NCBI RefSeq assembly: GCF_000346465.2 | Contig: NC_034012.1 | Coordinates: 5,764,084 to 5,828,083 of the forward strand | DNA: 64,000 bases | Direction: 5' to 3' | DNA from: Prunus persica | Lineage: Eukaryota; Streptophyta; Magnoliopsida; Rosales; Rosaceae | Shown: positions 8,878 to 63,400 of the stretch, in pieces | Position numbering within the stretch: the first letter of the stretch is position 1 | How the letters are laid out: each line of letters opens with the position of its first letter | Translations under genes and position numbers: made by a program | The notes under the pieces: model-generated | Told to the model about the DNA's origin: nothing | What the model saw: only the letters and a program-made list of their open reading frames with translations | The model's database searches: none

Positions 8878-9022
8878 TATGTTCTTTGTGCTTAGCTAAT
8901 TTATGAATATAATTATCGATTTCCTCTATAATTAAAAAAAATAAATAAATTGAAATCTATATATTCCTTTTCCTTTTCCCTTTTTCTGTTTCCGCTTTTC
9001 TAAAATTCATTTCTGTTGGTGA

Positions 9023-10925: not shown

Positions 10926-13029
10926 TCTTACCAATTCATCCATATTATAATATGTGTATGTATTTAATAACATGTGTATGTATTTATTAATACTACTCTA
11001 GACCCGTGACATATTATTCATGTTGTCTATTTATATTATTGCACCTAAATTAATAACCCCAAGAGGACTGTGAAGGTAATATAAATTTTCTTAGACTATG
11101 ATATTTAAAGCCAATGGAGCAAATTAAAATGAAGAAATTTTTTTTCCCTGGCTTCTTCCCTATAGTATGAATGTTGCGTATACCTAGTCAAGTGTAATAC
11201 TTGAACTTGATCTTCATTAAATTTGTACATGTAGTCGTAGACTTGGAGATATATATTTTCTTTACACTTGGGGGTAAATACGACTGGGTGTCTCCAATTC
11301 AAAGTTTGGGATTAATCCTCGTTTGGGGGTTCGGCTTATCTCTGATCACAAAGTATTTCTAATTGGATTCGAACCCCTGTCATTGAGGCACCAGGCAGTC
11401 CGCCAGCTGGAGGAGGCAATTTGCCAACTGCACCACACCTTGTGGTTATAGGATGGGGATATTTGTTCCATAAAGCCCCTTATTTCTTTTAAAATTTTTA
11501 ACTTTCTCTGAAAACAAGTAAAGGATAAAATAATGGAAATGTAAACTATTTCCTTTTTCGGTTTCCTGAGTATTCCAAAGATAAAATAAGACCGAAAGTA
11601 AAAGATCATTCCATTCCAAAATAAAAAGAAATACAATTCCTAATCCCCTTTTAACATTCCTGTCAAACAAATAGACTGTTAGTTCACTCATTTGCTAGAC
11701 ATTATCAAAGTACATTTTTTTTTGGGACACTATTTTCTTGGTGCTAGCTGCCCTCCAGTTGATTATTTATCTCCCCATTTTCCCTCAAACTCACCAGTTT
11801 GAGTTTGTATAAATCTTTAGTGGTTTAATTATTGTATTTGTTTCAGGTCAAGCTGCCTGGCTAATATCTACATATATTTCCGTTACGCCAGAAGTGGAAT
11901 GATTGAGAAGCAACGAATATGTCTATGATATGCTACTTTCGTGTAACATGTTTCCTACCCTTGTATTCTATCTCTCATCACAAGAGTATATGATATGCTA
12001 CTTTCGTGTAACATGTTTCCCCAAAGTTCACAGTAAAAGCGTTGTAGGGGCAACTCTTGCAACCTCAAGGCTCAAGGCTTTATTCTTGTAACATCATCTT
12101 TCTTCTTTTTCTTTTCTTCTTTTTCTTTTCGGAAACAAAAGTAAGTTTGTTCTTTTCTTCTGGTTTGGGGAATTGTTTATTCAATTTTCGGGGTATATTA
12201 CAATAACTTTTCGTACGTATGATATGAGAGGAGTCTCCAGAACATGAAACCCAAAGCCAAATGACAAGTTTTTGTTTTTGTTTTTGTTTTTGTTTTTAGG
12301 ACTGATTTGGTCTAGATGCCAAATGACATGCTTATACCCTCAAATATTATCAGCCACAGTAATCTGGCCTTTGTACATATGCATAAATAACTTTTCTATT
12401 GTTTTTGAATTAACTAATTGCACATCCCATGGCAAATTGGTAGTGTGTGTGGGAAATTCCCTTTCCTCTTTGTAATTTAAATTATCGCCTATAGTTTAGC
12501 GTCTCCTAAAAAGGTTGTTCATTCATTAAAAAAAATAATTAAACTTAAATGAAATTGGTGTGTATACAATCAAATCTTATGAATTAGTGAGCATATTTTG
12601 TAAGTAACACAGTTTATCAGTGCAAAATTGATATGTAATCTCAACCATATAAGTCCACCATGTCATTAAGTTTTATCATTTTATTTTGTTGAATTAGTAT
12701 ATTACTGGTTAAATAAGCATGTCTTAAAGTTTCGTTAAAAATTTACATATTTGTATAACAATTTTCATAATTTTTATTCAATCTTCACCGATATCGAAAT
12801 TTCCATAAAAATTTATGTATTTTGAGACCCCGATAATTCAGAAGTGATCGAAGTTTCACACCTTGCTTACAATATCCAAAAGGAATTAACAGCTCAATTA
12901 CAATAGTTGCTTCATTTACTTTTTATCGTTAATAGCTCAAAACTAAACTTTACCTGTTCTCTGTAGATAGGTATTAGCTGACTAGAGTCAACTTTCCAGC
13001 TCAGCTCATCAAGTTTTGTTATTGTCCTG
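10926..13029. other. Spacer between pseudogene A and gene B
   Basis: No gene is visible. The spacer is homologous to 34770-38030 in the second unit. It contains a SINE-like repeat (11240-11442), a short direct repeat (TATGATATGCTACTTTCG at about 11922 and 11989) and a pyrimidine-rich tract. Near 11846-11900, GTCAAGCTGCCTGGCTAATA followed by a reading like FRYARSG may be a decayed IQ-domain exon of a former channel 3' end, but this is weak. At 12268-12298 there is a (TTTTTG)n run. Confidence 0.5.
11240..11442 (-). mobile_element. tRNA-derived SINE-like repeat
   Basis: On the minus strand there is a good internal pol III B box, GGTTCGAATCC (11365-11375), preceded by an A-box-like TGGTGCAGTTGGC (11423-11435) with about 50 bp between them, as in tRNA-derived SINEs. 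A related copy occurs at the matching place in the second unit (36118-36290), so the insertion is older than the duplication. Confidence 0.6.
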
Positions 13030-13038
13030 TATAAAAAG
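13030..13038 (+). promoter_or_regulatory. TATA box of gene B
   Basis: TATAAAAAG lies 118 bp before the ATG. The same context (GTATTAGCTGACTAGAGT, then the TATA box, then GCAATTGT) is found upstream of gene C, so this short promoter is conserved between the two copies. Confidence 0.65.
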
Positions 13039-13155
13039 CAATTGTTCATTCAATGCATGCGATTGTTCATTCATATACAGACAAATAGAAATCAGTTTTT
13101 CTCTCCAGATTTTTTTCGTTTGGTCTTCTTCGATTCACACACATCCTCTGTTTCC

Positions 13156-16100
13156 ATGGATGAGGAAGGGGGAGAGGTAACCATCCCTTCAAGTTCCAGG
13201 TAAGTCGTCATTTGTTTTTCTAATGCATATATATATATATTACAGCTTTATTCACGAATATTGGGGAAGCCACGTAGGCTGTAGCACTACGCGCGTTTGG
13301 TTCGCAGTAATAAGAATCAAAATTTGTGGTTTCACTAATCACTAGTATTTGTCTTTTATTTCCTGACTAGTTCAGGTTGGTTTATACAAAAACCAAAAAG
13401 GGGTAATCTGAAATAAGTTGGAAAACCACTTACTAATGCAATTGTTTATATTTCAGGACTATCGCCCCTGAGAATAGTAATGATGTTCTTGCACGTGTGG
13501 CCCATATCGTGAGGTTAGTATATGCATATAACCTTGGGTCGAAAGGTTTATTGGTTCTTATTATTCATTATTGTTTTCTTATATATGTTAATTAATTTAT
13601 GCCTATATTGTTTTCAGGACTCTCGTTCAGATTATTGTGGGCATTCTCGCATTTGTGGCCAAAATCGTGAGGTTAGAATATGTACATATATATACATACC
13701 TTTTAGGGCTTTCAGATAACCATCCTTACAGTTTAGCAAGATACTAGTTAGATTTAATTCGAGCTAGTACTTAGCTTGCTAGTCTTTTTTTTATTTTTAT
13801 TTTAGATTTATTACAGCTTAATTCATGAATATGGGGGGCCACGTGGGCTGTAGCAATACCTGCGTTTGGTTCGCACACTGGGTTCTTTCAAAATGAAATT
13901 GTCCTGCCTATTTCAAGCGCATGAAAATGAAAAAATTGGTCCATTTTAACATGACATATTATACATATAGGATTTATTTGGAGAGAAAAATTCAAAATTA
14001 CCACATATTATACATATGGGGTCTATTTTAACCCAAAGTATTAAACCGGATTTTAAGTTTTTATTGTCTTTGATTTGTTGGATTTGATTGAACTATCGAA
14101 TGAGATCACCTTAATCCACCATTAGTTACATCAAGAATTATTATTTTGAGATATATTGTTTTTTTTTTTTTGTCTTTTATTTCCTGACTAGTTCAGGTTG
14201 GATTATACGAAAACCAAAAAGGGTAATCAGAAATATTTATTTTAAGATGACTTTTGTTGAAGAAATAAGTAGGAAAACCACTTACTAATGCAATTGTTTA
14301 TACTTCAGGACTATCGCTGAGGTTATTATTCATGTTCTCGGACGTGTGGCCGATATCGTGAGGTTAGTATATGCATATAACTTTTGGTCAAAAGGTTTAT
14401 TGGTTCTTATTATTCATTATTGTTTTCTTATATATGTTAAACTCTTAATTAATTTATGCCTATATTGAAGTAAGTAAATACAAGAAATCAAAAGGACAAA
14501 CTAACCTGCAGTCGTTTATATTTCAGGATTCTCATTCAGATTATTCTGTTGGTTCGCATATTTGTGCCCAAATTCATGAGGTTAGTATATGTATATAGCT
14601 TGCTAGTCTTTCAGGTGACCATCCTTATAGTGTAGTTAGATTTATTTCGAGCTGGTACTTAGCTTGCTAGTCTTTTTTTACGATTTAGGTTTATTGATTC
14701 TCATTATTCATTATTGTTTTCTTATATATGTTAATTAATTAAAAGAAATTTATAATATAACTCATTTCTTATATTGATTTTATATATAAATCCTAAAACC
14801 TATAAATTGAAGAAAAAAACCAAAACAAGGGTAAGCTGTAATATTTTTTTAATTTGAATAATGTGTGAAAAAAAAAAACCAAAACAAAGGCAAGCTGCAT
14901 TATGAATTTTAGAAAGAAAAAAAACATTGATCGTATTGTTTTAAATTCAGAATATGGATGCTACTAAAAGTCGTTTGTACATATGATTCGTTTTTCTTTT
15001 CCCTTATGACATCGTTTCTTATCAGCAAGTTTTTCGATTTCGGCGACGAATACTACAATCATGAAATGAAAAAGAAGGGACTTCTTTGGCGCGTCTTCTT
15101 TTCTCCATTAACGAGGAAAAATGCATTTATAATATCATGTATTGCAGTGTCAATAGATCCTTTGTTCTTTTACATTCCAGTCATCGATGAGAAGAACAAG
15201 TGCCTTGGAATAGACAAAAGGTTGAAGACTGCAGCTCTTTGCTTGCGAGCACTTCCTGATGCCGCTTTCGTACTGCATACTATAAATCATGTGTTTATGC
15301 TACTTGGTGGAGTGCTTATAAGTTGGGTGCCCTGGATTCGGGTGCCAGAGGTTGGTGCTTTTGTATTCCTCGTTGGAATACTTGGAATACTTGTAATACT
15401 TGTCTTCAGCTTTTTGAGTATATTAATTGGCGCTTTCCTTATCCTTCCCATCCCACAGGTAAGAGATTGAAATCTCAACTTTTGTTGCTTAAATAATGCA
15501 AACGTTTGAGTTCCTAAATATGCTTTTAATTAGGAGATATACCTATTTCATGCTAAAAATGTTTTTTAAAAAAACCCTTGTATTACACTTATTCAATGCC
15601 ACATCAACTGTTGGAGCTATGTGGGTGATGAGGTAGGTATTAATATTATAAGATACACATAATCTACCTAAACAAAAGGTCAAAGTGAAGATCTCACGTG
15701 TGTAAATGAAGAAAATGCATGAGCAGAAAATTGATTTTAGCATTCTGCTTTATTAGTATGCAGTCAAGAAAACCGACAGGAAGACAAAAATTAATATACC
15801 AACACATGCATAAAACTCACAAATCGTCACCAAATGGATTGGTTTGATTCGTTTGTGCTACTAGTTTGAGGCCTAAATCAAATCAGTCTAAATTGTGTCG
15901 CTACATTAATTTGGTGTGTAGTTTGAGACCAGACCACTTATAAGATGTTGTTTTACCTTCGTCTGCATAGTTGTACTTGAAATTTTTAGATTTTGCTTGT
16001 CTTAAACGGAAAATCAGTCAAGGTCAACCTTTTCTCTATGCGTACATAGTTAGATTTTGCTTATTCACTCTTCTCTAAACCAGCTGTTTTTTTTTTCCCA

Positions 16101-16871
16101 GTTGGCAATAGTAGTTTTCTTTTTCAAGTCAGCAGGCTCTGGACATTTCGGCCAAAGAGTGACCACCGTGAACGTGTTCCTTGTTATGCATTATCCGGCC
16201 AGGGTTTTCTTAATCTACAGATTCAGTAAATATCTCAAGAACAAACCCAAAACAGGGGTTCAAGCTGCATTATATTTTTTCTTCTACGTTCTTTCTAGTC
16301 ATGTAAGTTTTTTATCGCCATGACTCATAAATCACAATTTTATGTCTAATCTTTAGCTTTGTAACTGCTACACAACCAAGGGCTCTTTGGGACCATAATC
16401 ACTTATAGAGAGAAACACCTTCCACGTGCTTTTTCATATAATTATTTCAAGTGATTTTGCTGAAAAGCACATGGGAGAAGTGATTCTCCATAAAAGTGAT
16501 TATTGACATATTCACAATCATTAATCAAAATTGGACTAATCTTTTTGAAGATGATCTAATCATGAATAAACATTTTGTGATTAGGTACTTGGAGGTTTTT
16601 GGTATTTCTTTTCTATTCAACGAGAGATATCATGCTGGCATCAATTCTGTGAAAATGCTATAAGTTGTGGAGCCACTGATTATTGCAGTGGCAGTACTTC
16701 ACGAAATATCACCTTCCTAAATGAGTTATGCCCGTCAAATCCACCAAATGCTACCGTATTTAATTTTGGAATATTTCTTGATGCCATTCAATATGGAATC
16801 ACAAGATCAATGCATTTTCCAACCAAGTTCTTTTACTGCGTATGGTGGGGCGTCAGAAATCTAAGGTATGC

Positions 16872-16909
<38 letters not shown>

Positions 16910-19900
16910 TTTAAGCTATTGATAGTGTAGAGGAATTTCATATACTTTTCCACTTCTAACTAAAACAGAACTTTTAAAATGGATGCCCTGTAGGATAAAA
17001 GTGGTTTAGGTATTATCATTTATTTACAAAACTATATGTCATTTTGGTTACAAGCAGTTTTTTTTCTCAAATAATCCCTAATTCCTAGCATTTCAAAAAT
17101 CCGGAATTTATTGAACATGATTTATTTTCGAAATCCCTAAAATTTCTCTAGTAAGAAAAGAGAGATATGAGAAAATAGTTGTGTAGTTTTCTTCTCATTG
17201 GCACCTTTATTTTCCTATTTGTGGTTACATGGATACCGCCCAAGAGATACTTTGTCTGAAGGACAGCTTGTTGGGTCATTACAAATTTTATTTTAACAAT
17301 TCAAATTATCTATTTTTCACGTCTTGATTCATAAATCATCCTTGACAAATACAGTATTTCAAGAAAATATTAAAATGACAACCATCATTGAGTGGTAAAA
17401 TGGATTTTGATTCAAGTAATTTTTTGTAAGGATGATATTTGAAGAAATACCCAAAAAAGAGTAATAAAGGGTTATTTGAGGACAGTTCTGATCTCTTGGA
17501 CCACAGGAGTCTAAGAGATTTGTGGTCACCCACAGTTGGATGTAAATTCAATGGTTCAAAAAAGTTTTTTAAAAAGAGTACAAGAGTGAGTGAACCGTTG
17601 AATTTACATCCAACAATGAGTGACCACAAATCTCTTGAATCCCTGTAGTCCAATAGATCATTACTATATTTGAAGAATCTGTTAATTAAGACTCTCTGTA
17701 TATCCTAAATATTTCATATCAATATATTAAATACTTAATTGGTTGTTGCAGTAACTTTGGTACGAATATGCAAACAAGTAGCTATGTGTGGGAAAACTGC
17801 TTTGCAATTATCGTTTCTTTGATTGGCCTGCTATTATTTTTATATCTCCTTGGAAACCTACAGGTACGCTGGTGTTGAATCATGTTCATGATAATTTTTT
17901 ATAAATAAAAAAAAAAGAATCATGATGAATATTTTCCTATTATTTTTATATCTCCTTGGAAACCTACAGGTACGCTGGTGTTGAATCATGTTCATGATAA
18001 TTTTTTATAAAAAAAAAAAAAAAGAATCATGATGAATATTTTCTTTTTTTGTTGATGAATTAATCTCTTGATATTAGTAAAATTTTTAAATTATTATTCA
18101 GTTATTCGCGTGTGAAAGGATTTTCATCAATTTGGTCACTGACTTGTCAAATGTTAACATTATTTCATTTATAAAAAAATATTGAAATATTAATTAGTTA
18201 GTTTAAAATTAATAAATATACATAAACTTATGTTATAAATTTTAATAATAAAATAAGATTATTTACGAGAAAAAAAAACAGCCCCTAGAACCTGAACCCG
18301 ACAACCCCCAGCACCACTCCTCCCACCGCTCCCACTCCCACTCCCACCAAAACCCAACCCTTCCCCATCGCCAACTGCCACCCCCCAACCCGTGGCCACC
18401 ATTTCCTCCGCATATCCCCACCCTGATTTATCCTCCTCTATGTCCAAATCTGATCGCCCCTAGCCATACCCGCCACCACAAATCCACACTCAATTCCACC
18501 AATCCGATCTGCTTCCAGCCGCAGCTATCCGAATAAAGTAACCAGAAACTCCACACCCAGTCACCACTTGAAATCCATAGACACCAAAACCAAAATCTCA
18601 AACACGAGAAAAATAAATCCATACATAAACAACAGAGACAATAAAATTATGGGAAGAAGGAAAAATGTGGTTTTTTTTGGATGGGGTTTGGTAGTTCGGG
18701 TGATATCTTACTTCGTTTTTTATTTTAATGAATATTTTAATAAATTTTTAACATAAAACTGACAAAGTGGCTTAAAATGTTAACGTTTGCCAAGTCAATA
18801 ACGGAATTAATGAAACTAAAAACTCAGATATTAAAATAGATTTTTGGAATAGACGGAATGATAAAAATGCAAGTTTTGAAGAGTTTGTATGCAAAATAAT
18901 TCAGCTCCAGTACATTTCGCATTAGCGCCTCGAGCTTGACCGTATTTTTCAAATTTTGTCCATAGTATGGGTTCGATTACATATTCCTTTATCCTTTTCC
19001 TTTTCAGTGAATGGCTATTTTTATGCTTTTTTATATAAAATATCTCCTATTGAGAGGGACGATAACAGTTTAAACTTACACCCACTACATGAATGTATAG
19101 TTTATGCATATTTAATATGACGAACTAGCTTCTTGTTTGTTATGAAACAGATATATATGCAACAAGCACTCCAAAAATCGTTGGATAAGGAGGAGTTAGG
19201 ACGGAAGATAGATAAGAAAAAAAAAAAGATAAAAAAGTGCATGGAAATGCATGGCATTTCAAATGATACGGTTGGAAGAATTTTGGGTGGTATTAGAGAA
19301 AACAAATTGGAAAAAAACATAGATGGTGAAGTGGATGTGAATTATATCTTCTCTGTTCTTAATAAGGATAAGAGAGAAATTATGAGACACGATATTTGTT
19401 GGAAGAAGCTGAAAAATGTAGGTTCCCTTTCCTCTCTCTCTTTTCTTGGTGTAAGTATGATAGTAGGGTTTTTAATTTTTAATTTTATTATATGAAATGG
19501 ATATGAATTAAGGGGGTATTCAAAGTATTCTATTATCATGAACAGTATTTCAGTGGTTTTGTTTTGTCTTTTTGGATTTATAAAGTTATGTGAAACTATT
19601 TTGAAATCTGAGGGATGTTTGTGTAATGTCTAGGACTTTGTGGGTTTTGTAAAAACACGAACAATCTCAAGAGTAGTTATTGTAAAGAAGGCCAAGAATC
19701 TCCTTTGTGGAGATGGGATCTAGGCACAGTCTAATGGAAATGTAGGGCATGACCAATAAAATCTGAGTACAAGAGGAGCGCTAGCTGCAGCCAAGCTGTC
19801 TGCAAGGTGTTTGATGTTTTGAAGATAGTCGAGCTAACGTTCTATCTGTTCATGAGCCTACAATGTAGGGTCGAATGGTCTTAGATAAAGAAGCATGAAT

Positions 19901-21160
19901 CCAAATGCAACACGTGCGCTCATTCTTGATCCATGGGTAAAAGATGGGTTCTCTTGCTTGGTGGGATGACCATCAGTATCAAGGAGGAACTGTGGGTGGA
20001 CATGGTTCTGTGCCATCAAGCACACCTATCATATCATAGGTTTGAAGGATAGGGTAAGCTCTTTCCAAAGCATGTAATTGTGTTTTTGATGCTTAATGGG
20101 GAAGAGGTTAGACGCATGTTGAATTGCGACTAGGGGATGATAAGAAGAAAGGGTAGGAGCTGGGGTTAAAAAAGAGGATTAAAGAAGGGGTTCTTAGATC
20201 TAGGTTCAAAACGATTAGCTGTCATTGGGTTTAGTCCGCGTGTTTTTGGTTTTAGATGTAGGTCATTTGACTTTTATTACTCTTTTTATTGTGTCGATTT
20301 TACCCTTTGAGATACATAAGGAAAACATTGAAAATCTAAATTTAATGAATTATTTACTTGTAATTGAATTTCATAATTTAAATTTGGAATTCTTTCATTG
20401 ATAATATTTACCTAATATATGGGTAAAGTACAAATTAATCAATTGAAGTAAAGGCCTCTATATTATACTAATCAATTAGGCAATCGCCCACATTAAATAC
20501 GTACCTAACATATAGGTAAATAGTGTTCTTATTAGCAACGAAAAAAACTTAGTGATAAATCGTGTTACCTATAAGTCATGAACATAAATTAGAATACTAC
20601 CTATATGTTAGGAACATAAATTAGAAGACTACCTATAAGTCAGATACAGAAATAGACAAATAAAATTGTATGTTACCTATAAAAAAATGTACATAAAATA
20701 CTATTATTCATTGTCTAAAATATGACAAATAAAATTTGTATGAGGATTATGGTTAAATTTTCTGATATATATATATATATAGGCAAAGGAACTTCAAAAT
20801 ATGAATGATCAAGACTTGCAAATGATCTGCCCCTATCTCAAGCCAAAGATCTTCAAGGAGAATGAGATTTTGGTTGAAGCGGGACAGCCACTTAACGCAA
20901 TGCTCATTATTATAGCAGGCTCTATGCAGGCATACCTGCCAATTAGGGATGTTGGAGATGCACATCCCTCAACCTCATTTGAAACTCTTGGCAAAGGTAT
21001 GCTTGTTGGAGAACAACTTCTGGATTGGGCAGCAAAAACCAAAACTTTCGATGACCAGCCTGTTTCGTTCAAAACTATCCGATGTTCCGAAAAAGTAGAA
21101 GCCTTTGCTCTCACCGTTGATGACTTTAGTGAACATCAAAGTCAAGATGTCAAAAGGTGA
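13156..21160 (+). CDS. CNGC-like channel gene B with four N-terminal micro-exons
   Basis: Exons: 13156-13199, 13457-13513, 13618-13671, 14309-14362, 14527-14580, 15026-15458, 16102-16302, 16585-16865, 17752-17863, 19151-19417 and 20783-21160. All have GT-AG borders and compatible phases with no stop, giving about 644 residues if translation ends at the TGA at 21158. The order is micro-exon repeats, S1 ([14 protein letters not shown]), an atypical S2-S3, S4-S5 (16102), a Cys-rich pore loop (16585), filter [15 protein letters not shown] plus S6, C-linker, and CNBD with the cassette KGMLVGEQLLDWAA. Plant CNGCs are plasma- or inner-membrane cation channels gated by cyclic nucleotides or calmodulin. 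This one lacks the IQ domain. It may splice on into the modules at 21252-25441. Transcription is not shown. Confidence 0.75.
13457..14580 (+). repeat. Four tandem micro-exons coding an 18-19-residue hydrophobic repeat
   Basis: Micro-exons 13457-13513, 13618-13671, 14309-14362 and 14527-14580 are each bounded by CAG/G and AG/GTTAG and are phase-symmetric. They encode TIAPENSNDVLARVAHIVR, TLVQIIVGILAFVAKIVR, TIAEVIIHVLGRVADIVR and ILIQIILLVRIFVPKFMR. Introns before units 1 and 3 share long matching stretches (AACCACTTACTAATGCAATT), so a two-exon cassette was duplicated. Confidence 0.85.
16866..16912. repeat. TA/TG microsatellite
   Basis: An (AT)n run followed by (GT)n lies just after the donor of the gene B pore-loop exon. 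Confidence 0.8.
17489..17661. mobile_element. MITE-like foldback element in gene B intron
   Basis: The two halves are inverted copies: TGATCTCTTGGACCACAGG at the left pairs with the reverse complement of CCTGTAGTCCAATAGATCA at the right. A longer inner stem (GATTTGTGGTCAC, TTGGATGTAAATTCAA) continues to a short centre near 17575. It codes for nothing. I found no clear target duplication. Confidence 0.75.
17831..18044. repeat. About 107-bp tandem duplication covering the end of the S6 exon
   Basis: The segment from TATTTTTATATCTCCTTGG through the donor CAG/GTACGC and on to AATATTTTC is present twice, at about 17831 and 17938. The second copy carries a spare 5' splice site and the last codons of the S6 exon, but no matching acceptor. 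Confidence 0.8.
18119..18830. mobile_element. Pack-MULE-like element with GC-rich passenger
   Basis: Diverged inverted ends flank a GC-rich core: TTGTCAAATGTTAACATT at about 18146 and, on the other strand, TTGGCAAACGTTAACATT at about 18778-18795. The core (18270-18620) is rich in CCCACTCCCACC and unlike the AT-rich surroundings, as if a host gene piece had been captured. Borders are approximate and I could not define a 9-bp target duplication. Confidence 0.45.
19418..20782. other. Gene B intron with antisense Copia gag remnant
   Basis: This is the intron between the C-linker exon and the first CNBD exon. At about 19780-20130 the minus strand reads like a Copia gag (NYMLWKELTLSF, DTDGHPTKQENPSFTHGS) with stops and frameshifts, so it is a dead fragment. 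The rest is AT-rich and shows nothing I recognise. Confidence 0.6.
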
Positions 21161-21251
21161 AGTTTAGACAATCCTTGAAATTTGAAATAGTTGGCGCTTC
21201 TTTTTATTATTTTATTATTTTTATAATGTAGTTGGCGCTAATTTGAAACAG

Positions 21252-23085: not shown

Positions 23086-23177
23086 ACAATCCTTACCTTT
23101 TGAAACTTGAAATATTTGGCACCTCTTCTTTTTTTTTTTCTTTGTTTACTCATGTAGTTGCCACTAATTTGAAACAG

Positions 23178-24905: not shown

Positions 24906-24937
<32 letters not shown>

Positions 24938-38032: not shown

Positions 38033-38040
38033 TATAAAAG
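38033..38040 (+). promoter_or_regulatory. TATA box of gene C
   Basis: TATAAAAG lies 107 bp before the ATG, in the same context as the gene B TATA box. Confidence 0.65.
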
Positions 38041-38146
38041 GCAATTGTGCCTTCATTCAACGCATATACAGACAAATAGAAATCAGTTTTTCTCCCCAGA
38101 TTGTTTTCGTTTGGTCTTCTTCGATTCACACACATCCTCTGTTTCC

Positions 38147-40508
38147 ATGGAAAGGTTACCTTCTTACAATAACTGGTGGGAGATGGAAGAGGGAGAGTAT
38201 ACCCATCATCCCAGGTAAGTCGTACGTCATTTGTTTTGGAGAGAAAAACCTAAAATTGTCATTTGTCATTATTTGATTGGTTCTTATAAAATTTTAACAC
38301 ACTAATAACTAATTAGAAATTGACAAGTGGCATGAGTTTTTCTCTCCAAATATGCCATATATGAGTTTTTTTGTATAATATATCATGTTAAAATGGATTT
38401 TTGAATAAATATCTCAAACTTTTATTATAGTGTTCGAAAATTCTTGAAAATAAAACGACGAAATACAATTTTTATTTTCTTTTCCATTTTCTCATTTAGT
38501 TTATGCACTAATAAGAATCAAAATTTTTTGCATGTACGTAATTAAAAGTAGCATTTCAAGTTTACAACCGAGGTAATAAATTAGATGTGTTCTCCAGTCA
38601 TTTTAATAAAGCTCTCAAGATGACCAAAGTATATGTACAAATTCCTCCATTCATGGGTTTGTAAACCTATGTATGTGGGTAATCAGAAATATTTATTTTA
38701 AGATGACTTTTGTTGAAGAAATAAGTGGGAAAACCACTTACTAATGCAATTGTTTATATTTCAGGACTATCACTAAGATTATTTTTTATGTTCACGCATT
38801 TGTGGGCTGCATCGTGAGGTTAGTATATGCATATAACTTTGGGTCGAAACGTTTATTGGTTCTTATTATTCATTATTGTTTTCTTATATATGTTAAACTC
38901 TTAATTAATTTATGCCTATATTGAAATAACTAAATACAAGAAATCAAAAGGACAAACTAACCTGCAGTTGTTCATATTCAGGATTCTCGTTGAGATTATT
39001 GTGAGCACTCTCGCATTAGTGTCCAGTATCGTGAGGTTAGTATATGTATATACGTACCTTTTGGGGCTTTTAGGTGACCATATCCTTATAGCGTAGTTAG
39101 ATTTATTTCGAGCTAGTACTTAGCTTGCTAGTCTTTTTTATGATTTAGGTTTATTGGTTCTCATGATTCATTATTGTTTCCTTATATATGTTAATTAATT
39201 TAAAGAAATTTATAATAAAAACTCATTTCTTATATTGAATTTATATATAAATCCAAAAACTCATAAATTTAAGAAAAAACCCAAAAAAAGGTAAGCTATA
39301 ATAATTTTTTTTAATTTAAATGATGTGTGAAATACCATTATTATTCTTGCATTAGGATTTAAAATTTTATGGATAATTTTCGTTTAGTAGGTTTGAATTA
39401 GGATTCAAGTTTTATGGTATTTTTCATACTTTCCCTTTGGCTAAACTATTATTTTATTCCCTAAACTATACCATAATTGTTGATTTTCTCCCTAAATAAT
39501 TTTTTCAGTAAATTAAGGACTTAAACTATATGAAATTTGCCAATTTGGGATTCACTGTTAATTTTTTGAATGTCCCCAATTTAAATCCCGCCTCCTCCGC
39601 CGACCTCAATTCAAACCCCAACTCCCAACCTGCCCGCTTTTCCAACGCCGCCAGCTTTGACGACCCAATGTTTAGACTGTGCGGCTCTGGTGACGCCATG
39701 CATTGCCCACGTTTAGCTCCAATTTTGTTCTGCAAATTCATTTCACCAGTTTTTTGTTTTTTTTTTGGTTATTCTCTCTTTTAAATTTTGTTTTTGACTT
39801 TTTTATTATTATTTAATAAGGTGTAAACGTTTTCTTTAATATTACGAATTTTCTCTTAATATTGATGGAAATTTGAATGGACATCCAAAAAATTAACGGT
39901 GAGTCTCCAATTGGCCAATTTCATAAAGTTTAAGTCCTTAATTTATCCAAAAAAATTATTCATAAGAAAAATTGACAATTATGGTATAGTTCAGGGACAA
40001 AACGATAGTTTAGCCTTTCCCTTTTTATTTCCTAGTGAAACCCTAGCTGGGTGTAACTATTTAAGCTGACTTTAAAGTTGTATTACTCATCTTTTCATTC
40101 ATATTAATAATAAAAAATTGAGAGTTTCTCTATGATTGATTTTAGGCTTAATTACACTAATGCTCCTTAAAATCATGGTCAACCTCAAATTTCACATTGT
40201 CAAGTGACCTCCGTTGACTGATATTTTGTGTCTCACTTTACCCTCCACTGTCAACTCTGTCAAATAATTTTTTTAAATGACTGACGTGGCACGAGTGGGA
40301 CCCACTATTTTGCTAAAATGTATGTCGTGTAGGTGCCATGTCTCCCACCCGAGTCCAATTTTTCTGTTACCATATGCCCACCCTATTTCCCTCTTAGTTT
40401 TTTGACATGTGGCAAACCACTTAACAACACTTAACTTCATCACCCCCATCCTCCCCTTTGACTTAAGCCCTCTCGGATAGAACCCAAACCCGACCACCAC
40501 CGCCCCTC

Positions 40509-46500: not shown

Positions 46501-49500
46501 CTTCGTAACTTCAATCTTTTATTTCTTACATTTCACAATACTTAGATTTCTCCAAACACATCCTATTAAAGTTGTAAGAATATAACTTAAATTAAATTTC
46601 CTTCTAATTATCATGGCAACAAAAAGCCCATGGAAGGATTTTTATCTTAATCCTTGTATAGCTTCTAGTTTCCTTGGCCTTCTAGTTGGCATCCATGGAA
46701 ACAATTGTCTGAATTTGTTGAATATGGAGAGAATGAAAAGCTTCGAGCTTTGCTTTTTTTCTTTTTTGTATTTTTGTTTTTTGAATAATTTCAGTCGATG
46801 ACAGCTATGAGATTCTTGACTCTATGAGGCTAAGGATGAAGAAAGAATGAAAGCATTTTTTAAAAGAATTTTTTTTTTCCACACATGACACTTCTATGTC
46901 ATGTATGTCAGCGAAATATGGGCTCCACTCGGGCCACATCATCATTTTTAACATATTATATTGCAAAATTGATGATATGGACAAAGTGAGATGCAAAACA
47001 TTGGTAAATGAGTTACTTTACGTTTCGGGAACAATGATGTCACCGATCCACCCCCATATATATGATTGATTTCTTATTATCAGAGATCTTTTGATATTCG
47101 ATTTGGAATACCATCCAGATGAAGGTTCAGATGAGGATTCAAACAGTGAAAAGAGGAAAGAAGAGGGACCTATTAGGCGCATCTTCTTCCCTCCATTAAC
47201 AGGGAAAAGGATATTAATGTTATTATGTGTTGCAGTGTCAATAGATCCGCTCTTCTTTTACATTCCAGTCATCAATAACGAGAAAAAGTGCCTTGCAATA
47301 GACAAAAACTTGAGGGCTGCAGCTCTTTGTTTGCGAGCACTCCCTGATGCCGCTTTCGCACTGCATTCTATAAGTTCCGGGTTTAGGTTGTATCCGTTTG
47401 TGGAACTCTACTCTGTACAAGTATTTGTCTACAGCTTTGCGAGTATACTAGTTGCCGTTTTCCTTATGCTGCCCATCCCACAGGTACGTAAGAGATTGAC
47501 TATATTGCGTTTTCTTTATTTTATATATAGTTTCGATTGTTGAAATAAAATTTATAGGACACCTCACAAGATGTCCCTAAAATGAATTTATTTGAGAGAA
47601 TCATAACTCATATACTACAACGGGCAATGACAGACGTATAGAGGGACAAGAGTGGCCAGGTGACCCCATAGTAGCCAGAAAGGTAGATGTGGAAGTTTAA
47701 GGTGACCCTACCATTGGCTGGTGTGCGACCCCAAAGGCGCACACCAGGTGTTTAACGAAAGGTCCGAAAGACCTTGCATTACTGCTGTAATAACTTGACT
47801 TCAAATCATTTTGAGCCGGGCTTTATAAAAAAAGAAAAAGAACATAACCTACCCATTTTATCTTACATTCACGCTAGGTTTTAAAAGAAAAAAAATTAAA
47901 CACCCATTTTTTCCTTCCACATATTAAACCAAAAAAGAAATATGTATCTTATCTTTATATATATATGTTGATCTTCAATCAATTTCTTCATATATTACAA
48001 CTATACTAGTACAAACATCCCTTTTACTTGCCTAACCCGACTCACTCCCCCTCATTAACCCCCCAAAATGAATATTTATTCCTCCTCGTCACCAATTGAT
48101 TAAGGGGTTATTGATAGTATTTTCATTAATTGATTAATGCTTGTATTTTGATTAATTGATTAGGGCTTTGTGTTTTGATAAGTTTATCAGGGATTTTTTT
48201 AAATATTTGATTAGGGTCTTGTGCTTTCATTAATTGATTAGGGTTTTATTTTACATGTTGTGTTTTGATTATGGTTTTGTGTTTTGTGTTTTGATTAGGA
48301 ATGAATATGCTATTGTTTAATTTTTCAATGTTATTTTTGTTTTTAAAAAAATTAGGAACCTTTACACTATGACCCCATATCCTAAGAATCATGGATCCGC
48401 CACTGAGAAGGGGATGATGATTTCTCACGCACTAGTCTGCAAATCAATGCAGTTTTCCATAGGCTCAAGCCTCGTTGGCGATGTTGGAAAATTACTTCTC
48501 CTAGTCACAACAAATTGATGGAAAGATAAAATAAATAAATTATGCCAAGATGACAACTAGTGGACCAAGAGCGAACACCAAAAATTAAACGTAGTTCAGC
48601 AAAAAAACATGCCTGTCCACAGTGTGTTATCACCTTCACCCTAAGAAAGAAGTACAAGTACAAGAACACAAACCGCCCAAGAGTTTTGTACCCAAACTCA
48701 AGCCCGTACCCAATAGGATACACCCTTTGTACACCATCTCTCAAACCCTTTAATGCAAGAGCATCTAGTAGACTTTCCTAATCTAAGTGGGCATTAGAAA
48801 TAAGGCTAAGTTTTAGTTATATTAAATTAATAGGTTATTTTATTACTTGTTTTCCTATTCTTACAAGGATTTGGTTTAATTTCTTATTTAGGTTTTTAAT
48901 TTCCTATGTCAATTAGGTTTTCAATATTCTAGTATAAATAGGCTATTAAGAGACTCTTATATTTAGTTTTTTGTTGATGAATATAAGTTCAGACGTTAGT
49001 CTATAGAGTTTCTGTTGGGATTTTGCCCTAGAACTCAATTATCTTCGTTCCAACTTTAATTCTATTGTTGTATCCTTCTATTCTATATTTTGGGTATGTT
49101 TGAGTCATTAGACAGCAGCTTATAGTCATTGCCCCGCATCAAATTGGTATTGGAGCCTAGGTTCATCCTTGTTCCACAGCATGTTTGGACGTGATAGAAG
49201 TGGTGGACGAGGGAACCAAGCCCAACACACAGAGGTGGTTGAGATGCGATGTATGATGGAAGACTTGTTGAGAGCGGTGCAAGCCCTCCATAGGAACCCT
49301 TACACAAACCGGAAGGTGGTGGTGAGGATGAATATGAAGACGAGATAGACGTGAACAATCCTTTTGATGAAGCTAGAAACCATGGTGATGGTCATTGAGG
49401 TGGATTGGAAGAGGGGTTGGTTCGTGCGTTGGATTTGAATAGTGGAGGAATTAAAATTGAAGTTGTTGATTTCTATAGAAATATGCATGTCGAAGATTAT

Positions 49501-52500
49501 TTGGACTGGGAGGCAAGTCTAGAGAATTATTTTGAATGAAAGCCTATGGCAGAAGATCGCAAGGTGTTGTTTGTAAAACTTAAATTGAAGAGTACTGCAC
49601 TTCAATGATGGAAGTGAGTTGAAGAACAGTGTGCTCGGCAAGGGAAGCAGAAGATCAACACATGAGATCGTATGAAATCCAATTTACGAAAGCAGTTTTT
49701 ACTGGCTGATTATACCATGGAGTTATATAAGCGGTTTCATAACTTAAAGCAACGAAACATTTTCATAATCTCTCAATTCGAGTTGGTTTAAATGAGACTA
49801 ATGAACAAATGACATCCCGTTATCTTTCTAGTTTGAATCAGACAATTCAAGATGAGATGGGGATGGTCCGTTTGTTCAACCTTGAAGATGCTCGACAATA
49901 TGCTTTAATGGCATAGCGAAGACTATCTCGTCGTAGTGGAAAGAGAGTAGTTTCTAGCTGCCCAGATACAGTTTGGTAAAGAGATACTATTGCTGTTCAT
50001 GGCGTCCAAAGTGATGAAGAAGCCAATCCAAGTATCCGAATAGGTGGTAGGAACTTGGGTGCTGATAAGAGTGAAAAGGGGAAGGAAATAACACAATTTC
50101 ATCATCCAAATAGGGCTAATGTCAAGGTTTCCAAGGCTGGACGTACTCTACAAGCTCAATGTTTCAATTGCGGAGAGGCGGGGCATAAATCTTACACGTT
50201 TCCACAAAGAAGAATAAATTTGGTAGGTGATAAGATCAAATTTCCAGAACCAGGGTATAATGTTTATGGCAATGAAGAGGAAGTCATTGATCTCTTACCA
50301 GTTGAAGGAGAATGTTTGTTGGTAAGGCGAGTGATGACAACTCCCAAAATTAAGGAAAAAGATTGGCATCGACAAAATATATTCCGAACATGAGTCCTTT
50401 GTAGGGGAAATGCGTGCAACATGATTCTTGATGGAGGAAGTAGTGAAAACATTATCTCAAAGGAGGTGGTAGAAAAATCTAAGTTACCAATTGAGAAGTA
50501 TCCTAATCCCTATAAGGTTGCATGGTTTTGAAAAGGAAGCAAGGTACCAATCACTTTAAGGTGTTTGGTTAAATTCACAATGGGTAATACCATTGAGGAT
50601 GAAGCTTGGTGTGATGTTGTTCTCACAGAAGCATGTCATATCTTATTGGGAAGACCATGGTTGTTTGACAAAGAGATGATGTATTCTACTAAAGCTAACA
50701 CCTATTCATTCTATAAGGATGGGAGAAAGTGGACTTTGAAGCCTCTTGAAGAAGGATTCTGCCATGCTTTCTAAATATGCAAGGGTTAATGGTCATTTGA
50801 GAGCCCATAGGTTTGACATTGAGAGCAAGGATGTGGTGTTTGTGTATCCACTCGTCGCTACGAAGGATGTTGAGGGAGCTTCGAATAAATTGGAAGATGA
50901 CAACCTCCTAAATTTAGAAAACCCTCCCGTGTTTGACTGTTGTTTGGAAGAAGATAGAAACTGAAACTAGTGTAATATTGAAGGCAATGAATCACGAAGA
51001 AGTTGGGTTTGAACTTTTGAAGCAACATAATCAACCCACCTTTGAAGGAAAGGTGATTCAAGAAATTCTTGAGGGAATTGTTGGAGATCAGATGAATTCC
51101 TTCAAAGATGATACTTATGAGTATGTTGATTTTCTTGAGGTTGATTCTTCTAATTTACGAACTACCAAGAACGTCATTGGCCTTGTTTGACTACTGGTTT
51201 TTGGTGTGAAGAGTTTTTGGGCAGAGAGCTTAGCTGCAGAAGATATCTGGTATGTTCCAGAAGGATCAGATATTATAAATATCTATTTCTTTGGAGTGGG
51301 AAGGTTCAATATCAAGGCCAAAGTTCTATGGACAACTTATCTAAGAGGAGGTTATGTCTAGGCGGTTTTCACCAAACGATTGGAATTTGAGGAAGAATTC
51401 TTCCCAAACCGGTGGAGTTGATGCAGGAGCATCTAAGTAGGCATCAGCCAATAAGGCTGAGTTTTAGTTATATTAAATTAATAGGTTGTTTTACTTGTTT
51501 TCCTATTCTTACTAGGATTTGGTTTAATTTCCTGTTTAGGTTTTTAATTTCCTATTTCAATTAGGTTTTCTATATTCTAGTATAAATAGGCTATTAAGAG
51601 ACTCTTGTATTTAGTTTGTTGTTGATGAATATAATTTCAGACGTTAGTCTATAGAGTTTTTGTTGGAATTTTGCCCTAGAACTCAATTATTTTCTTTCCA
51701 ACTTCAATTCTATTGCTTTATCCTTCTATTCTCTGTATTTTGGGTATGTTTGGGTCACTGGACAGTAGCTTATAGCCGCTGCCCGACATCACTCTTGAAG
51801 ATCACTCTTACCCAAGAGAAATTCCCTCCCTTGATACTCCAAGAGTTATACATACTCTTGATATACACCCAACTCCCCAGTGAATGAATACTCACACACT
51901 CATGATCACACTTGAGTTGATGTCTTGCTTGATTTCCAAATGAAAACAAGCCTCCCTTTATATAGCCAAGGAGAAACCCCCATATGCATTGTACCGAACC
52001 CAAAAGGCAAGAGTCAACTTTATATAAGATACTACAGAATATTTCTTTAATTATTCATGAAGGAAAATTCCCGAACCAAACCAGTATCATTACCTCATTT
52101 GCCGACAATAAGCTATTAAGATGATATGAAAATATGTTGTATTTAAAATTAAAAATTAAAAAAATTAAAGAATCAGTCAAGGTTTATATTTTGTTCAATA
52201 TTGTCTTATGCACCTATAGTTAGATTTTCCCACATGCATTGACTCTAGGCTGTTTTTTTTTTTTTTTCCCCCAGTTGGCAATAGCAGTTTCCTTTTTCAA
52301 GCCAGGAGGCTCTGGACATCTCGGCCAAATAGTAACCGTGAACATCTTCCTTTTTCTCTATTATGTGGCAAGGATTGTACTAATTCGCATATACAGTCAG
52401 AAAGTCAAGTACCAATACAATATCGGAATATGGTTTCGAGCTTCATTCAATTTCTTTTTCTACATGGTTGCTAGTAATGTAAGTTTATAACTCGTAAACA

Positions 52501-54534
52501 TTCCTTCTTTTCATCGTTTATCCTTACTTTCGTAACTTTTGCGTGACTAAGATGTCTTATGTACTAAATAAATAACTAACTAAAACTGTTGATTACATTT
52601 ATAAATCACTTTGTTTACCTTAAAAATGAACTACTTGCATTGGTAGACTCCACATCTATTAAAGAGATCATAAACAAAATGGCTTTGCCTACTTCCTTTT
52701 ACTTTAGTACAATTTTGTTTACCGAATAGAGAAGACAATATTGCATTTACCAATTTTGGAGAACAAGTTCATGACATACGAAATCGGATGTGGAGAAATT
52801 TCGAATATTTAAGCATGATATTCTCATTTTTACGATATTTGTTTTTTTTACTTTGTCCTCTTGGTGGAGTTACACTTCTTTTATTTTTATTTTTTCAGAT
52901 TACTAGCTAAACTCAGTTTAAGAGTTTTTTTTTAAAAATTGTGTATAAAAAGGAACAAGTTTTTTAAAATAAATAAAAAATAAAAAAAACTCAAATCCAC
53001 CTAAAAAGCTCATGTAGGAAACTAGCTATCTAGAAGTCAAATTTTTATGAACACAGTGACTAGCGAAAAGAGAAAAAATGACTTTGATGAACTATAAATA
53101 AGTTTTGTGTCATTTAAAGTTAAATTTAACCAAGATTTGATTAACCTTTATTGACATTATTATCTAATTTTTTGCCCAGGTACTTGGAGGCTTTTGGTAC
53201 CTTTTTTCCATTCAACGTGAGATATCATGCTGGCAATCCTGTAGAAATGGTGCAGGATGTCGAGCTACTTATTATTGTAGTGACAGTACTCCACGAGACA
53301 TTACATTCCTAGATGAGTTATGCCCCGTAAATCCACAAAATGCTGCCATATTTAATTTTGGAATATTTTTGGAAGCTATTCAGTCTGGAATCACGAGATC
53401 ACGACATTTTCCAACCAAGTTCTTTTACTGTGTATGGTGGGGAATCAGAAATCTAAGGTTTGCAATTATGCATATTGAGCTAGTACTCTTTATAGATAAT
53501 GAAATGCTTAATTTAAATTGAGGGGGTGCGATAGTTCGGATTTAAATTTTCTTATATATATATATATAATGCTTAATTGATTTCTGCAGTAACTTCGGCA
53601 CGAATCTGCAAACAAGTAGCTATGTGTGGGAAACCTGCTTTGCAATTGTAATTTCTATTACTGGCTTGCTACTATTTTTATACCTCATTGGAAATGTGCA
53701 GGTATGAATGATGAATCTCTCAGCTCTATAATTGTTAATCTATTTGCTTGTCATAAAGAATATTTTTGTGTTGTGTTGTGAAACAGATATATATGCAGCA
53801 TGTAAAAACAAAATCGTTGGAAGATGAGGAGAAGACAAAGAATTTGAAAAAGAAGACAATGTCGAAAAGAAGGCAGATACGAGGGTGGATGAGAGATCAT
53901 GGCATCCCTCTTGATGAGGCGAGAAATATTATGCAACAAATAAAATATCACAAATTAGTAGATGACATAAATACTGATGAAGAAGTGGATTTGAAGTATA
54001 TCTTCTCTGTTCTTTATGACTCTGGGAGAAACCTTCTCCAGCATCATCTCTGCATGGAGACCCTAAAACAAGTATGCTCCATTTTATTTTCCTCCTTCTG
54101 CTTTTTTTTCTGGAGCCGAAACTTATGCAAGGATTAATTTTGTAAATATATAGGTAGACCATCTTCGAAATATGGATGAAAAAATGGTGAAAATTATCTG
54201 CGACCACATGAAGCTAAAGATATTCGAAGACAAGGAGTACATTATTGAAGCGGAAAAACCACTTGAGGTGATGATGATTACTGTAGAAGGCCTTGTGCAG
54301 GTGTACCCGTCAACTAGGCATGCTGCTGCAGAAGCACCTTCTGCCCAAACTTTTGAGGAAGGTGTTATTTTGGGACGAGAACTTGTGGATTGGGCAGCGA
54401 TGACAACCCATGATCGCCCCCCTATTTCCTTCCAAATTGTCCAATGCCTCACCAAAGTAGCAGCCTTCGTTCTCAAAATTGAGGACTTGAAAAGATTAGT
54501 CATCTCCAAACGCATCATCTTCCGGAGGAATTAA
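38147..54534 (+). CDS. CNGC-like channel gene C with two N-terminal micro-exons
   Basis: Exons: 38147-38214, 38765-38818, 38982-39035, 47084-47483, 52275-52478, 53180-53457, 53590-53701, 53787-54071 and 54154-54534. Lengths sum to 1836 nt, about 611 residues, with no stop or phase break. The order is leader peptide, two micro-exon repeats, S1 ([16 protein letters not shown]), a very short S2-S3 part (only about 40 residues between [13 protein letters not shown] and LPIPQ, versus about 70 in ordinary CNGCs), S4-S5, pore loop, filter [15 protein letters not shown] with S6, C-linker with CMETLKQ, and CNBD. The binding cassette reads [13 protein letters not shown], with Arg where plant CNGCs usually have Glu. 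It ends RIIFRRN without an IQ domain. Introns 3 and 4 (8.0 and 4.8 kb) are swollen by transposons. Confidence 0.75.
38765..39035 (+). repeat. Two micro-exons coding the hydrophobic repeat (gene C)
   Basis: 38765-38818 encodes [18 protein letters not shown] and 38982-39035 encodes [18 protein letters not shown]. Intron flanks match those around the third and fourth micro-exons of gene B. Confidence 0.85.
39439..40015. mobile_element. Pack-MULE-like element with perfect 9-bp target duplication
   Basis: Long inverted ends of about 135 bp start GGCTAAACTATTATTTT at the left and GGCTAAACTATCGTTTTG on the other strand at the right. The element is flanked by TTTCCCTTT at 39430-39438 and 40016-40024, the 9-bp duplication typical of Mutator-like elements. 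The core (39580-39740) is GC-rich and open for 84 codons (39530-39784; [17 protein letters not shown]), unlike the AT-rich intron, so it probably is a captured host gene piece. It lies in intron 3 of gene C. Confidence 0.8.
40511..40587. repeat. (CT)n microsatellite
   Basis: An uninterrupted CT run of about 75 bp lies in the left arm of the MULE-like element; a shorter GA run lies at about 41073-41098. Confidence 0.95.
41120..41500 (-). repeat. 3' LTR of the Copia element
   Basis: 381 bp. Contains an internal direct repeat, CCCACCTAACACATTAAAAA. Confidence 0.92.
41513..45718 (-). pseudogene. Copia gag-pol, broken
   Basis: Minus-strand order: gag with N-terminal [11 protein letters not shown] and a CCHC zinc knuckle near 44700-44740, protease ([13 protein letters not shown], about 44530-44570), integrase zinc region (H-x-H, C-x-x-C, about 44050-44180), integrase core ([23 protein letters not shown]; about 43640-43980), reverse transcriptase (MDVKSAF; YVDD near 42440) and RNase H down to 41513. 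It is broken by TGA codons after the gag ORF (near 44960) and near 44870, a frameshift in an A-run near 44400, a TAG near 44011, a TAG near 42634 and a frameshift in RNase H near 41790. Most of the stops look like C-to-T or G-to-A changes, as expected from deamination of methylated cytosines. Confidence 0.9.
45721..46101 (-). repeat. 5' LTR of the Copia element
   Basis: 381 bp; the same family end sequences as the 3' LTR. Confidence 0.92.
47484..48481. other. First part of gene C intron 4
   Basis: AT-rich intron sequence. Near 47630-47860 there is a more GC-rich block (CCAGGTGACCCCATAGTAGCC, GGCGCACACCAGG) that looks like old retroelement debris, but I cannot assign it. Repeats of TTGATTAGGG at 48100-48300 are simple-sequence drift. 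Confidence 0.4.
48754..51791 (+). mobile_element. LTR retrotransposon with gag and protease only
   Basis: LTRs 48754-49141 and 51422-51791 begin TGCA.GAGCATCTA and end CATCA, with a TATAAATAGG box in each. A primer-site-like TTGGTATTGGAGCC follows the first. No reverse transcriptase or integrase is present, so this is an internally deleted, non-autonomous copy, probably Ty3/gypsy-like. I found no clean target duplication; the element may have inserted with loss or the ends may have drifted. Confidence 0.8.
49180..50780 (+). pseudogene. Decayed gag-protease of the LTR element
   Basis: Reading from about 49180 ([13 protein letters not shown]), a gag with [10 protein letters not shown] and ALQ.WK motifs has several stops in place of Trp. 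A zinc-knuckle-like [14 protein letters not shown] (about 50159-50200) has lost its last Cys. A protease-like [16 protein letters not shown] segment (about 50418-50470) is followed by [13 protein letters not shown] stop interrupts near 50530. No polymerase follows. Confidence 0.75.

Positions 54535-63301: not shown

Positions 63302-63400
<99 letters not shown>

What the first reader, a model, noticed from the sequence alone, without database searches (positions are those of the whole stretch)
13156..14580. Modular N-terminus made of phase-symmetric micro-exons, one 18-residue helix repeat per exon
Gene B has four micro-exons of 57, 54, 54 and 54 nt and gene C has two of 54 nt (38765-39035). 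All start after AG with one base of a split Arg codon and end in AG/GT, so any number can be skipped or added without changing frame. The peptides (e.g. [36 protein letters not shown]) share a pattern of Arg, branched hydrophobics and Ile-Val near the end. Eighteen residues is exactly five alpha-helical turns, so stacked units would show the same face. I know of no such module in front of plant CNGC channels. It could be a tunable membrane- or partner-binding handle.
Basis: partly seen in the sequence, partly recalled or inferred. Interest (0 to 1): 0.87.

Follow-up and report, generated by a model that had tools for sequence, protein, structure and literature searches.

The report
Fast-diversifying micro-exon array in peach CNGC
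Two neighbouring ion-channel genes in peach carry four and two copies of a tiny interchangeable exon that encodes a helical N-terminal extension, and the copies have changed their amino acids several times faster than the silent DNA around them, which suggests selection for variety at that end of the channel.

Summary
Gene B has exons of 57, 54, 54 and 54 nt and gene C two of 54 nt, all homologous, open and in one phase. Splicing B by hand gives 644 aa identical to an NCBI Prunus persica CNGC1-like protein, so an annotated protein already contains the module. A third, probably damaged copy (D) lies 13.6 Mb away. Among the proteins found, units occur only in Prunus, 0 to 4 per gene model. The split Arg is what splice consensus plus a phase-2 intron gives. 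The main new result is the rate of change: between the B3-B4 and C1-C2 blocks, 36% of amino-acid-changing sites differ, against 4% of silent and 6% of intron sites; omega 7.8, LRT p = 0.0003. The array expanded recently and its exons diverged under apparent diversifying selection, while pore exons are constrained between B and C. The units form an amphipathic repeat; AlphaFold draws one helix over residues 22-90 at modest confidence. Exon choice by splicing is possible but untested: no RNA was available. Best reading: a lineage-specific recognition helix on a divergent CNGC channel.

The parts
13156..13199 (+). gene B exon 1 (MDEEGGEVTIPSSS + AG of split codon)
   Evidence: identical to start of P0001
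13457..13513 (+). unit B1, 57 nt, TIAPENSNDVLARVAHIV
13618..13671 (+). unit B2, 54 nt, TLVQIIVGILAFVAKIV
14309..14362 (+). unit B3, 54 nt, TIAEVIIHVLGRVADIV
14527..14580 (+). unit B4, 54 nt, ILIQIILLVRIFVPKFM
15026..15458 (+). gene B exon 6 (S1 region), entered in phase 2 (AG|C, Ser)
16102..21160 (+). gene B exons 7-11: 16102-16302, 16585-16865, 17752-17863, 19151-19417, 20783-21160 (stop codon included); pore, C-linker, first cNBD
   Evidence: for exon borders, for the stop; 644-aa product identical to P0001
13545..13597 (+). 53-nt intron element after unit B1; further window copies start at 14394, 14688, 38850, 39148 (two more in locus D)
38147..38214 (+). gene C exon 1
38765..38818 (+). unit C1, 54 nt, [17 protein letters not shown]
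38982..39035 (+). unit C2, 54 nt, [17 protein letters not shown]
47084..54534 (+). gene C exons 4-9: 47084-47483, 52275-52478, 53180-53457, 53590-53701, 53787-54071, 54154-54534 (stop codon included); 611-aa open model; a Copia-like element lies in the intron before 47084

Best explanation
A short 2-2-symmetric exon arose in (or was captured by) the phase-2 first intron of a Prunus CNGC gene and was recently multiplied: one unit became an odd/even pair, the pair was doubled in gene B, and the block was shared among genes B, C and D. After copying, the exon cores were driven apart by diversifying selection on the protein. Joined, the units make a long amphipathic helix in front of S1 with a kept hydrophobic stripe and a more variable other face. 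Shown: exon anatomy, phase, homology, open frames, an annotated protein identical to my splice model, the excess of amino-acid-changing over silent and intron substitutions, hydropathy periodicity, constraint on the pore exons between B and C. Inferred: the order of duplications; that the helix is made and lies on the membrane or a partner through its hydrophobic stripe; that the variable face is a recognition surface (subunit pairing, a regulator such as calmodulin, or avoidance of a pathogen protein). I put about 0.4 on a partner- or effector-recognition role within this reading.
For: Splice model = P0001, 644 of 644 residues. Exon vs intron: B3-B4 vs C1-C2 N 29.0/81.5, S 1.0/26.5, intron 26/438; N>S p = 5e-4, N>intron p = 6e-12, S vs intron p = 1. 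D1 vs C1: N 14/41.3, S 1/12.7, intron 2/152; D1 vs B3: N 9/40.3, S 0/13.7, intron 4/151; B1 vs B3: N 8/40.3, S 1/13.7, intron 5/144. In the B-C block the two exons are the peaks of difference (13 and 17 per 54 nt; maximum 8 in 283 non-exon windows). ML over three blocks (B1-B2, B3-B4, C1-C2): omega 7.81, omega = 1 rejected, p = 0.00026. Pore exons 8 and 9 constrained: omega 0.31 and 0.27 for B-C, 0.32 and 0.20 for C-D. Helical periodicity p = 0.0002; the side with most residue types lies opposite the hydrophobic side (p = 0.036). AlphaFold helix 22-90. Units in two almond proteins, single unit-like stretches in P. avium P0121 and P. brigantina P0006.
Against: No RNA evidence. B1 vs D1 shows no acceleration (N 1/43, S 1/14, intron 10/215). 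B2 vs B4 exceeds its intron only weakly (N 12.5/40.7, intron 20/110, p = 0.09). Of the five single-exon pairs, N>S is below 0.05 in one (B2-B4, 0.021; others 0.25, 0.06, 0.051, 0.94), N>intron in three. By parsimony count the odd and even groups of four give p 0.02-0.08 depending on kappa, subsets of three 0.009-0.09. Other parts of the genes also evolve fast: B-D omega 1.12 overall, exon 7 1.72, exon 10 1.77, and only 0.80 and 0.55 for exons 8 and 9; B-C exon 11 1.20. Several near Prunus proteins omit the units: P. mume P0002 joins exon 1 to S1, P. brigantina P0003 and P. armeniaca P0004 start inside the intron, peach P0005 (locus D) starts later still. The unit-like stretches of P0121 and P0006 score low (32 and 26). 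Helix pLDDT is 57-78 over residues 21-80 and below 50 at 1-21 and 82-99. D lacks the S1-exon acceptor by my reading (no candidate in L012), so it is probably not a working copy of the joined form.
Confidence: 0.6

Rival explanations
1. Splice-tuned cassette array: transcripts carry different numbers or choices of units, so one gene makes a set of channels with N-termini of different length and surface, much as schistosome micro-exon genes do.
For: All units are 2-2 symmetric, so any subset keeps frame. Gene models across Prunus hold 0 (P. mume P0002), 1 (P. avium P0121, P. brigantina P0006, by my reading), 2 (C), 3 (almond P0086) and 4 (B, almond P0024) units.
Against: Number differences between gene models can be gene differences or annotation errors; both almond models also contain translated intron. 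Symmetry is forced by insertion into a phase-2 intron. The one model of peach gene B that was listed uses all four units.
Confidence: 0.3
2. Conversion mosaic: the units diverged long ago like the rest of the genes, and gene conversion later homogenised the introns but not the exons.
For: The micro-exon block (B-C introns about 6% apart) is far younger than the genes (B-C dS 0.43), so the block has been exchanged between loci, D at 13.6 Mb included.
Against: Silent sites inside the exons are as close as introns (1.0 of 26.5; about 9 expected at dS 0.43), so the exons took part in the exchange and changed afterwards. Exons escaping on their own would still need selection.
Confidence: 0.2
3. Decay: the array is a non-functional or never-translated part of a relaxed gene, and the real start is the ATG at 14958 that runs open through the intron into the S1 exon.
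For: P0003 and P0004 are annotated this way (MLLKVV...); the frame is open in B and D. Whole-gene B-D omega is 1.12.
Against: Relaxation gives omega near 1, not 7.8, and does not raise exon change above intron change. All 8 units stay open in one shared phase with intact AG/GT borders. Pore exons are under constraint between B and C.
Confidence: 0.13
4. Membrane handle: the hydrophobic units (B2, B4, C2) act as one or two extra membrane segments in front of S1 rather than as a surface helix.
For: GRAVY 2.37, 2.14, 2.44 for B2, B4, C2. Three Rosa relatives have different but hydrophobic stretches before S1 (P0008, P0014, P0033).
Against: Each of the six window units carries at least one Q, E, K or R; units B1 and B3 are polar (summed biological scale, values recalled, 16.1 and 8.1, against 1.5, 3.9 and 0.5 for B2, B4, C2). 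The amphipathic periodicity fits a surface helix better.
Confidence: 0.2

Closest known systems
Schistosome micro-exon genes (MEGs)
   Same: Very small symmetric exons, high dN/dS, potential for variation by exon choice (abstract and introduction of PMC4350168).
   Different: MEGs are secreted or membrane-anchored proteins with most of the coding region in such exons; here the array is an N-terminal accessory on an ion channel, the units are copies of one exon, and alternative splicing is untested.
Plant CNGC channels (solved structure 9j34, 'Cyclic nucleotide-gated ion channel 1'; Arabidopsis recalled)
   Same: Residues 120-636 match 9j34 at E = 1.4e-96; pore residues such as W386-W387-G388 are invariant in 55 aligned relatives.
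   Different: Residues 1-119 are unmatched; the match ends at residue 597 of 716, so the C-terminal tail (calmodulin-binding IQ region, recalled) is absent in this model; by my reading two more cNBD-like copies follow gene B.
Accelerated exons of snake venom genes (ASSET)
   Same: Coding segments change faster than expected after duplication (abstract start of PMC2711939 in the listing; that venom introns are more conserved than exons is recalled).
   Different: Here silent sites stay at intron level and the change sits in 54-nt duplicated exons inside one gene.
Ordinary tandem exon duplication
   Same: Segmental copies of exon plus flanking intron in a row.
   Different: Copies here diverged almost only at amino-acid-changing sites.

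Membership tests
Plant CNGC family | Homology to a solved CNGC over membrane part, C-linker and cNBD | tested here: met
   9j34 E = 1.4e-96, query 120-636; also 9j35, 9kcu, 9kcv
Plant CNGC family | Pfam ion-transport and cNMP-binding domains above gathering score | tested here: not met
   only cNMP_binding at 19.5 bits against cut-off 27.5; no ion-transport match. The relative P0002 passes for cNMP_binding at 27.7. Divergent by profile, clear by pairwise homology
Plant CNGC family | C-terminal calmodulin-binding tail after the cNBD | tested here: not met
   B ends at residue 644 with the match ending at chain residue 597 of 716; the C model also stops right after the cNBD. That the tail binds calmodulin is recalled
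Micro-exon (plant definition) | Exon of at most 51 nt (or at most 15 nt for the smallest class) | tested here: not met
   54 and 57 nt; limits from abstract starts of PMC6600660 and PMC8831610
MEG-like gene | Most of the coding region in tiny symmetric exons | tested here: not met
   4 of 11 exons in B, 2 of 9 in C
MEG-like gene | Alternative use of the exons in transcripts | not testable with these tools
   no RNA data held
MEG-like gene | Elevated dN/dS | tested here: met
   omega 7.81 for the units, p = 0.00026
Gene region under diversifying selection | Replacement changes exceed silent and neutral changes | tested here: met
   for the B-C block and the three-block test; exception B1-D1, weak B2-B4 against intron

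The most novel reading that the evidence does not exclude
Prunus evolved a splice-tunable, hypervariable recognition helix on a calcium-permeable channel: duplicated exons serve as a store of N-terminal surfaces that are diversified under an arms race (pathogen proteins or partner choice) and mixed by exon choice, a plant counterpart of schistosome MEGs on an ion channel.
Probability: 0.22. Interest if true: 0.9.

Novelty: new variant of a known kind. Interest (0 to 1): 0.7.

Why it matters
Ion channels are usually conserved; a channel whose pore exons are constrained while tiny duplicated exons at its N-terminus change amino acids several times faster than silent DNA is unusual. CNGCs are known as calcium channels in plant immunity and development (recalled), so a diversifying N-terminus would point to a partner or attacker that can be looked for. 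It also gives a clean test of whether exon symmetry is used for choice or is only a by-product of insertion into a phase-2 intron.

Tried and rejected
An 18-residue genome search found nothing (0 of 1 genome; probably too short); DNA searches replaced it. Rfam at gathering threshold gave no family in the window. GC-biased conversion as the cause: not sufficient, because exon GC is 0.37-0.49, changes are a mix of transitions and transversions (7 to 6, 8 to 9, 6 to 7 for B3-C1, B4-C2, B2-B4), and such bias would not spare third positions (16, 10, 4 at codon positions 1, 2, 3 for B3-C1 plus B4-C2). The Arg at each joint as a functional residue: explained by splice consensus. The idea that 18 residues were selected for five turns: the length follows from copying one 54-nt exon, so only the hydropathy pattern counts as evidence. 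Sd of hydropathy showed no face preference (p = 0.61). Unit matches outside Prunus: the next-best scores in the 127 proteins (41 down to 36) fall on the S2 helix of Malus, Pyrus and similar relatives, after S1, not on an N-terminal unit. The remaining hits (8 of 9) match other parts of the query (28% coverage) and I treat them as ordinary CNGCs. Literature: ten searches ran; no title or abstract start in those listings describes this module, but only PMC4350168 was opened (outline with abstract; introduction).

Phase of the first intron in other peach CNGCs: of 30 loci examined, 12 showed the S1 motif on the strand scanned; 8 of these had a candidate acceptor; 6 of 8 (B and C included) were phase 2, and 2 (L020, L024) were not, which may be wrong acceptor picks.

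Full report
What is there. The window lies on contig C4 of a 227.5-Mb genome, which I take to be peach because the gene B product is identical to a Prunus persica protein. Gene B has exons 13156-13199, 13457-13513, 13618-13671, 14309-14362, 14527-14580, 15026-15458, 16102-16302, 16585-16865, 17752-17863, 19151-19417 and 20783-21160 (stop included), all internal borders AG/GT, giving 644 aa. I built this by hand from the sequence; the protein search then returned P0001, 'cyclic nucleotide-gated ion channel 1-like [Prunus persica]', 644 aa, 100% over 100%. The annotation therefore already contains all four units, although I cannot see whether reads support it. Gene C gives an open 611-aa model with two units; no identical protein was found for it. 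A third locus, D (C4:19.376-19.389 Mb), has an exon 1 and two open units (57 and 54 nt), but by my reading its S1 exon has lost the stretch with the acceptor (no candidate), so the joined form is probably dead.

Is it more than chance? The bare pattern is common: 20 open stretches of that shape in 64 kb, 6 of them the units. The homology is not: the units align with each other and with long stretches of intron, and the block was found at three loci only.

Why it is symmetric and why Arg recurs. B, C and four other peach CNGC loci enter the S1-side exon in phase 2 (6 of 8 candidate acceptors, from 12 of 30 loci with a readable S1 motif). An exon inserted into a phase-2 intron without breaking the frame must be 2-2 symmetric. 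Ending in AG and starting in G is splice consensus, so AGG (Arg) at each joint follows.

How the copies changed. Within the odd units (B1, B3, C1, D1) the near introns are almost identical while the exon core is full of differences; the exon edges are kept. Counting on codons, the B3-B4 versus C1-C2 comparison gives 29.0 changes at 81.5 replacement sites, 1.0 at 26.5 silent sites and 26 at 438 intron sites. A sliding count puts both exons (13 and 17) above all 283 non-exon windows (maximum 8). A three-block maximum-likelihood fit that I wrote gives omega 7.81 and rejects omega = 1 (2dlnL 13.3, p = 0.00026). Third codon positions are short of changes (16, 10, 4; p = 0.012), so the frame predicted by splicing is the frame in which the bias appears. 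Results the other way: B1-D1 shows no excess; B2-B4 is not clearly above its intron (p = 0.09); of five single-exon pairs, N>S is below 0.05 in one and N>intron in three; odd and even groups of four by parsimony give 19N:2S and 32N:5S with p 0.02-0.08 depending on kappa. The pairs are not independent, so I rest the claim on the three-block test and on the B-C block.

The rest of the genes. B-C dS is 0.43 and omega 0.77 over the remaining exons; pore exons 8 and 9 have 0.31 and 0.27, exon 11 has 1.20, and exon 1 has 2.56 on 12 codons only. C-D gives 0.70 overall, 0.32 and 0.20 for exons 8 and 9. B-D, a close pair, gives 1.12 overall with exons 8 and 9 at 0.80 and 0.55 on few changes and exons 7 and 10 at 1.72 and 1.77. 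So the channel core is kept between B and C while other parts run fast. The micro-exon block (introns 6% apart for B-C, 1.3% for C1-D1) is much younger than the genes, so the block itself has moved or been converted between genes. Silent sites in the exons share that youth, so the replacement burst came after the copying.

Other Prunus. Restricting the search to residues 1-95 of B found 3 proteins among 392 candidates: peach itself and two almond proteins, P0086 and P0024. P0024 holds four units, P0086 three; both models also contain translated intron. The search with residues 1-140 of C found 9 among 356 candidates, of which P. avium P0121 (53% over 73%) is the only one covering the unit region. 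P0121 reads R-PSIVETIEEVVANVVGIL-R, and P. brigantina P0006 reads R-TIVQDYLEGVIAIARHLF-S, each a fit to one 57-nt unit by my reading of protein only, with low alignment scores (32 and 26). P. mume P0002 has none. Of 127 proteins scored (the 120 listed of 180, plus 7), P0001, P0086 and P0024 score 83-98 against seven peach unit peptides; the next, 41 and below, fall on the S2 helix of apple and other relatives.

Structure. Mean hydropathy of seven peach unit types (D1 left out as near-identical to B1; one residue of B1 left out) peaks at 100 degrees per residue (p = 0.0002); the hydrophobic side points to 129 degrees and the side with most residue types to 294 degrees (p = 0.036); the spread of hydropathy has no preferred side (p = 0.61). 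AlphaFold with 55 sequences draws one helix from 22 to 90, pLDDT 57-78 over residues 21-80 and below 50 at 1-21 and 82-99; few rows cover this part. The channel part matches 9j34 from residue 120 on.

How it most likely works. The joined units extend the channel by a long amphipathic helix before S1. The kept stripe would hold it on the membrane, on the channel or on a partner; the changing side would set what it recognises. Change concentrated on amino acids after duplication fits a surface tuned against or towards a changing partner. Choice of units by splicing is possible by design but unproven.

Verdict. Real, correctly described, and more interesting than first stated because of the rate pattern; function and splicing remain open.

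Noticed in passing
20783-25441: By my reading gene B is followed by two further copies of the C-linker exon (from about 21252 and 23178) and of the cNBD exon (from 22607 and 25040), each cNBD copy with its own stop and the second with an insertion; P. mume P0002 (800 aa) reads through two cNBDs, and Malus, Pyrus and Rosa relatives (P0007, P0013, P0008) also seem to hold two.
   Followed up: partly
41120-46102: A Copia-like element in the intron of gene C between the units and the S1 exon; its LTRs (41120-41501, 45721-46102) are 98.4% identical over 382 nt, so a young insertion inside an 8-kb intron.
   Followed up: partly
13545-13597: A 53-nt T-rich intron element in seven copies within 6 mismatches: after B1, B3, B4, C1, C2 and twice in the intron after D1, so shared by odd and even introns; branch-point region, splicing element or just recent copying.
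   Followed up: partly
9004-10925 and 33259-34800: A second CNGC-like gene (A) upstream of B and a partial copy of it upstream of C; with the 81.5% match of 12401-13160 to 37389-38151 this suggests a tandem duplication of the A-B segment.
   Followed up: no
14958-15025: ATG at 14958 opens a frame through the last intron into the S1 exon (MLLKVV...); P. brigantina P0003 and P. armeniaca P0004 are annotated with this start.
   Followed up: partly
38765-38818: Unit C1 ([13 protein letters not shown]) resembles the start of the CNGC S2 helix of apple relatives (e.g. RTLTDFIFFVH in P0074, score 41); chance, convergence or a hint at the origin of the unit.
   Followed up: no
P0014 (Rosa sericea protein), N-terminal part: A different short N-terminal repeat (RQLWSTVTYPV / RQLWSTVIYPF) in a Rosa CNGC relative, hinting that N-termini of this group are repeatedly remodelled.
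   Followed up: no
15026-15458: The S2-S3 stretch of exon 6 differs strongly in length and sequence between B, C, D and P. mume (53 and 31 gapped residues in B-D and B-C), a second fast region of the channel.
   Followed up: no
4151-6589 and 59917-63911: An 812-aa frame that looks like a CACTA-type transposase and an exocyst EXO84-like gene (names recalled from the translations, not tested).
   Followed up: no
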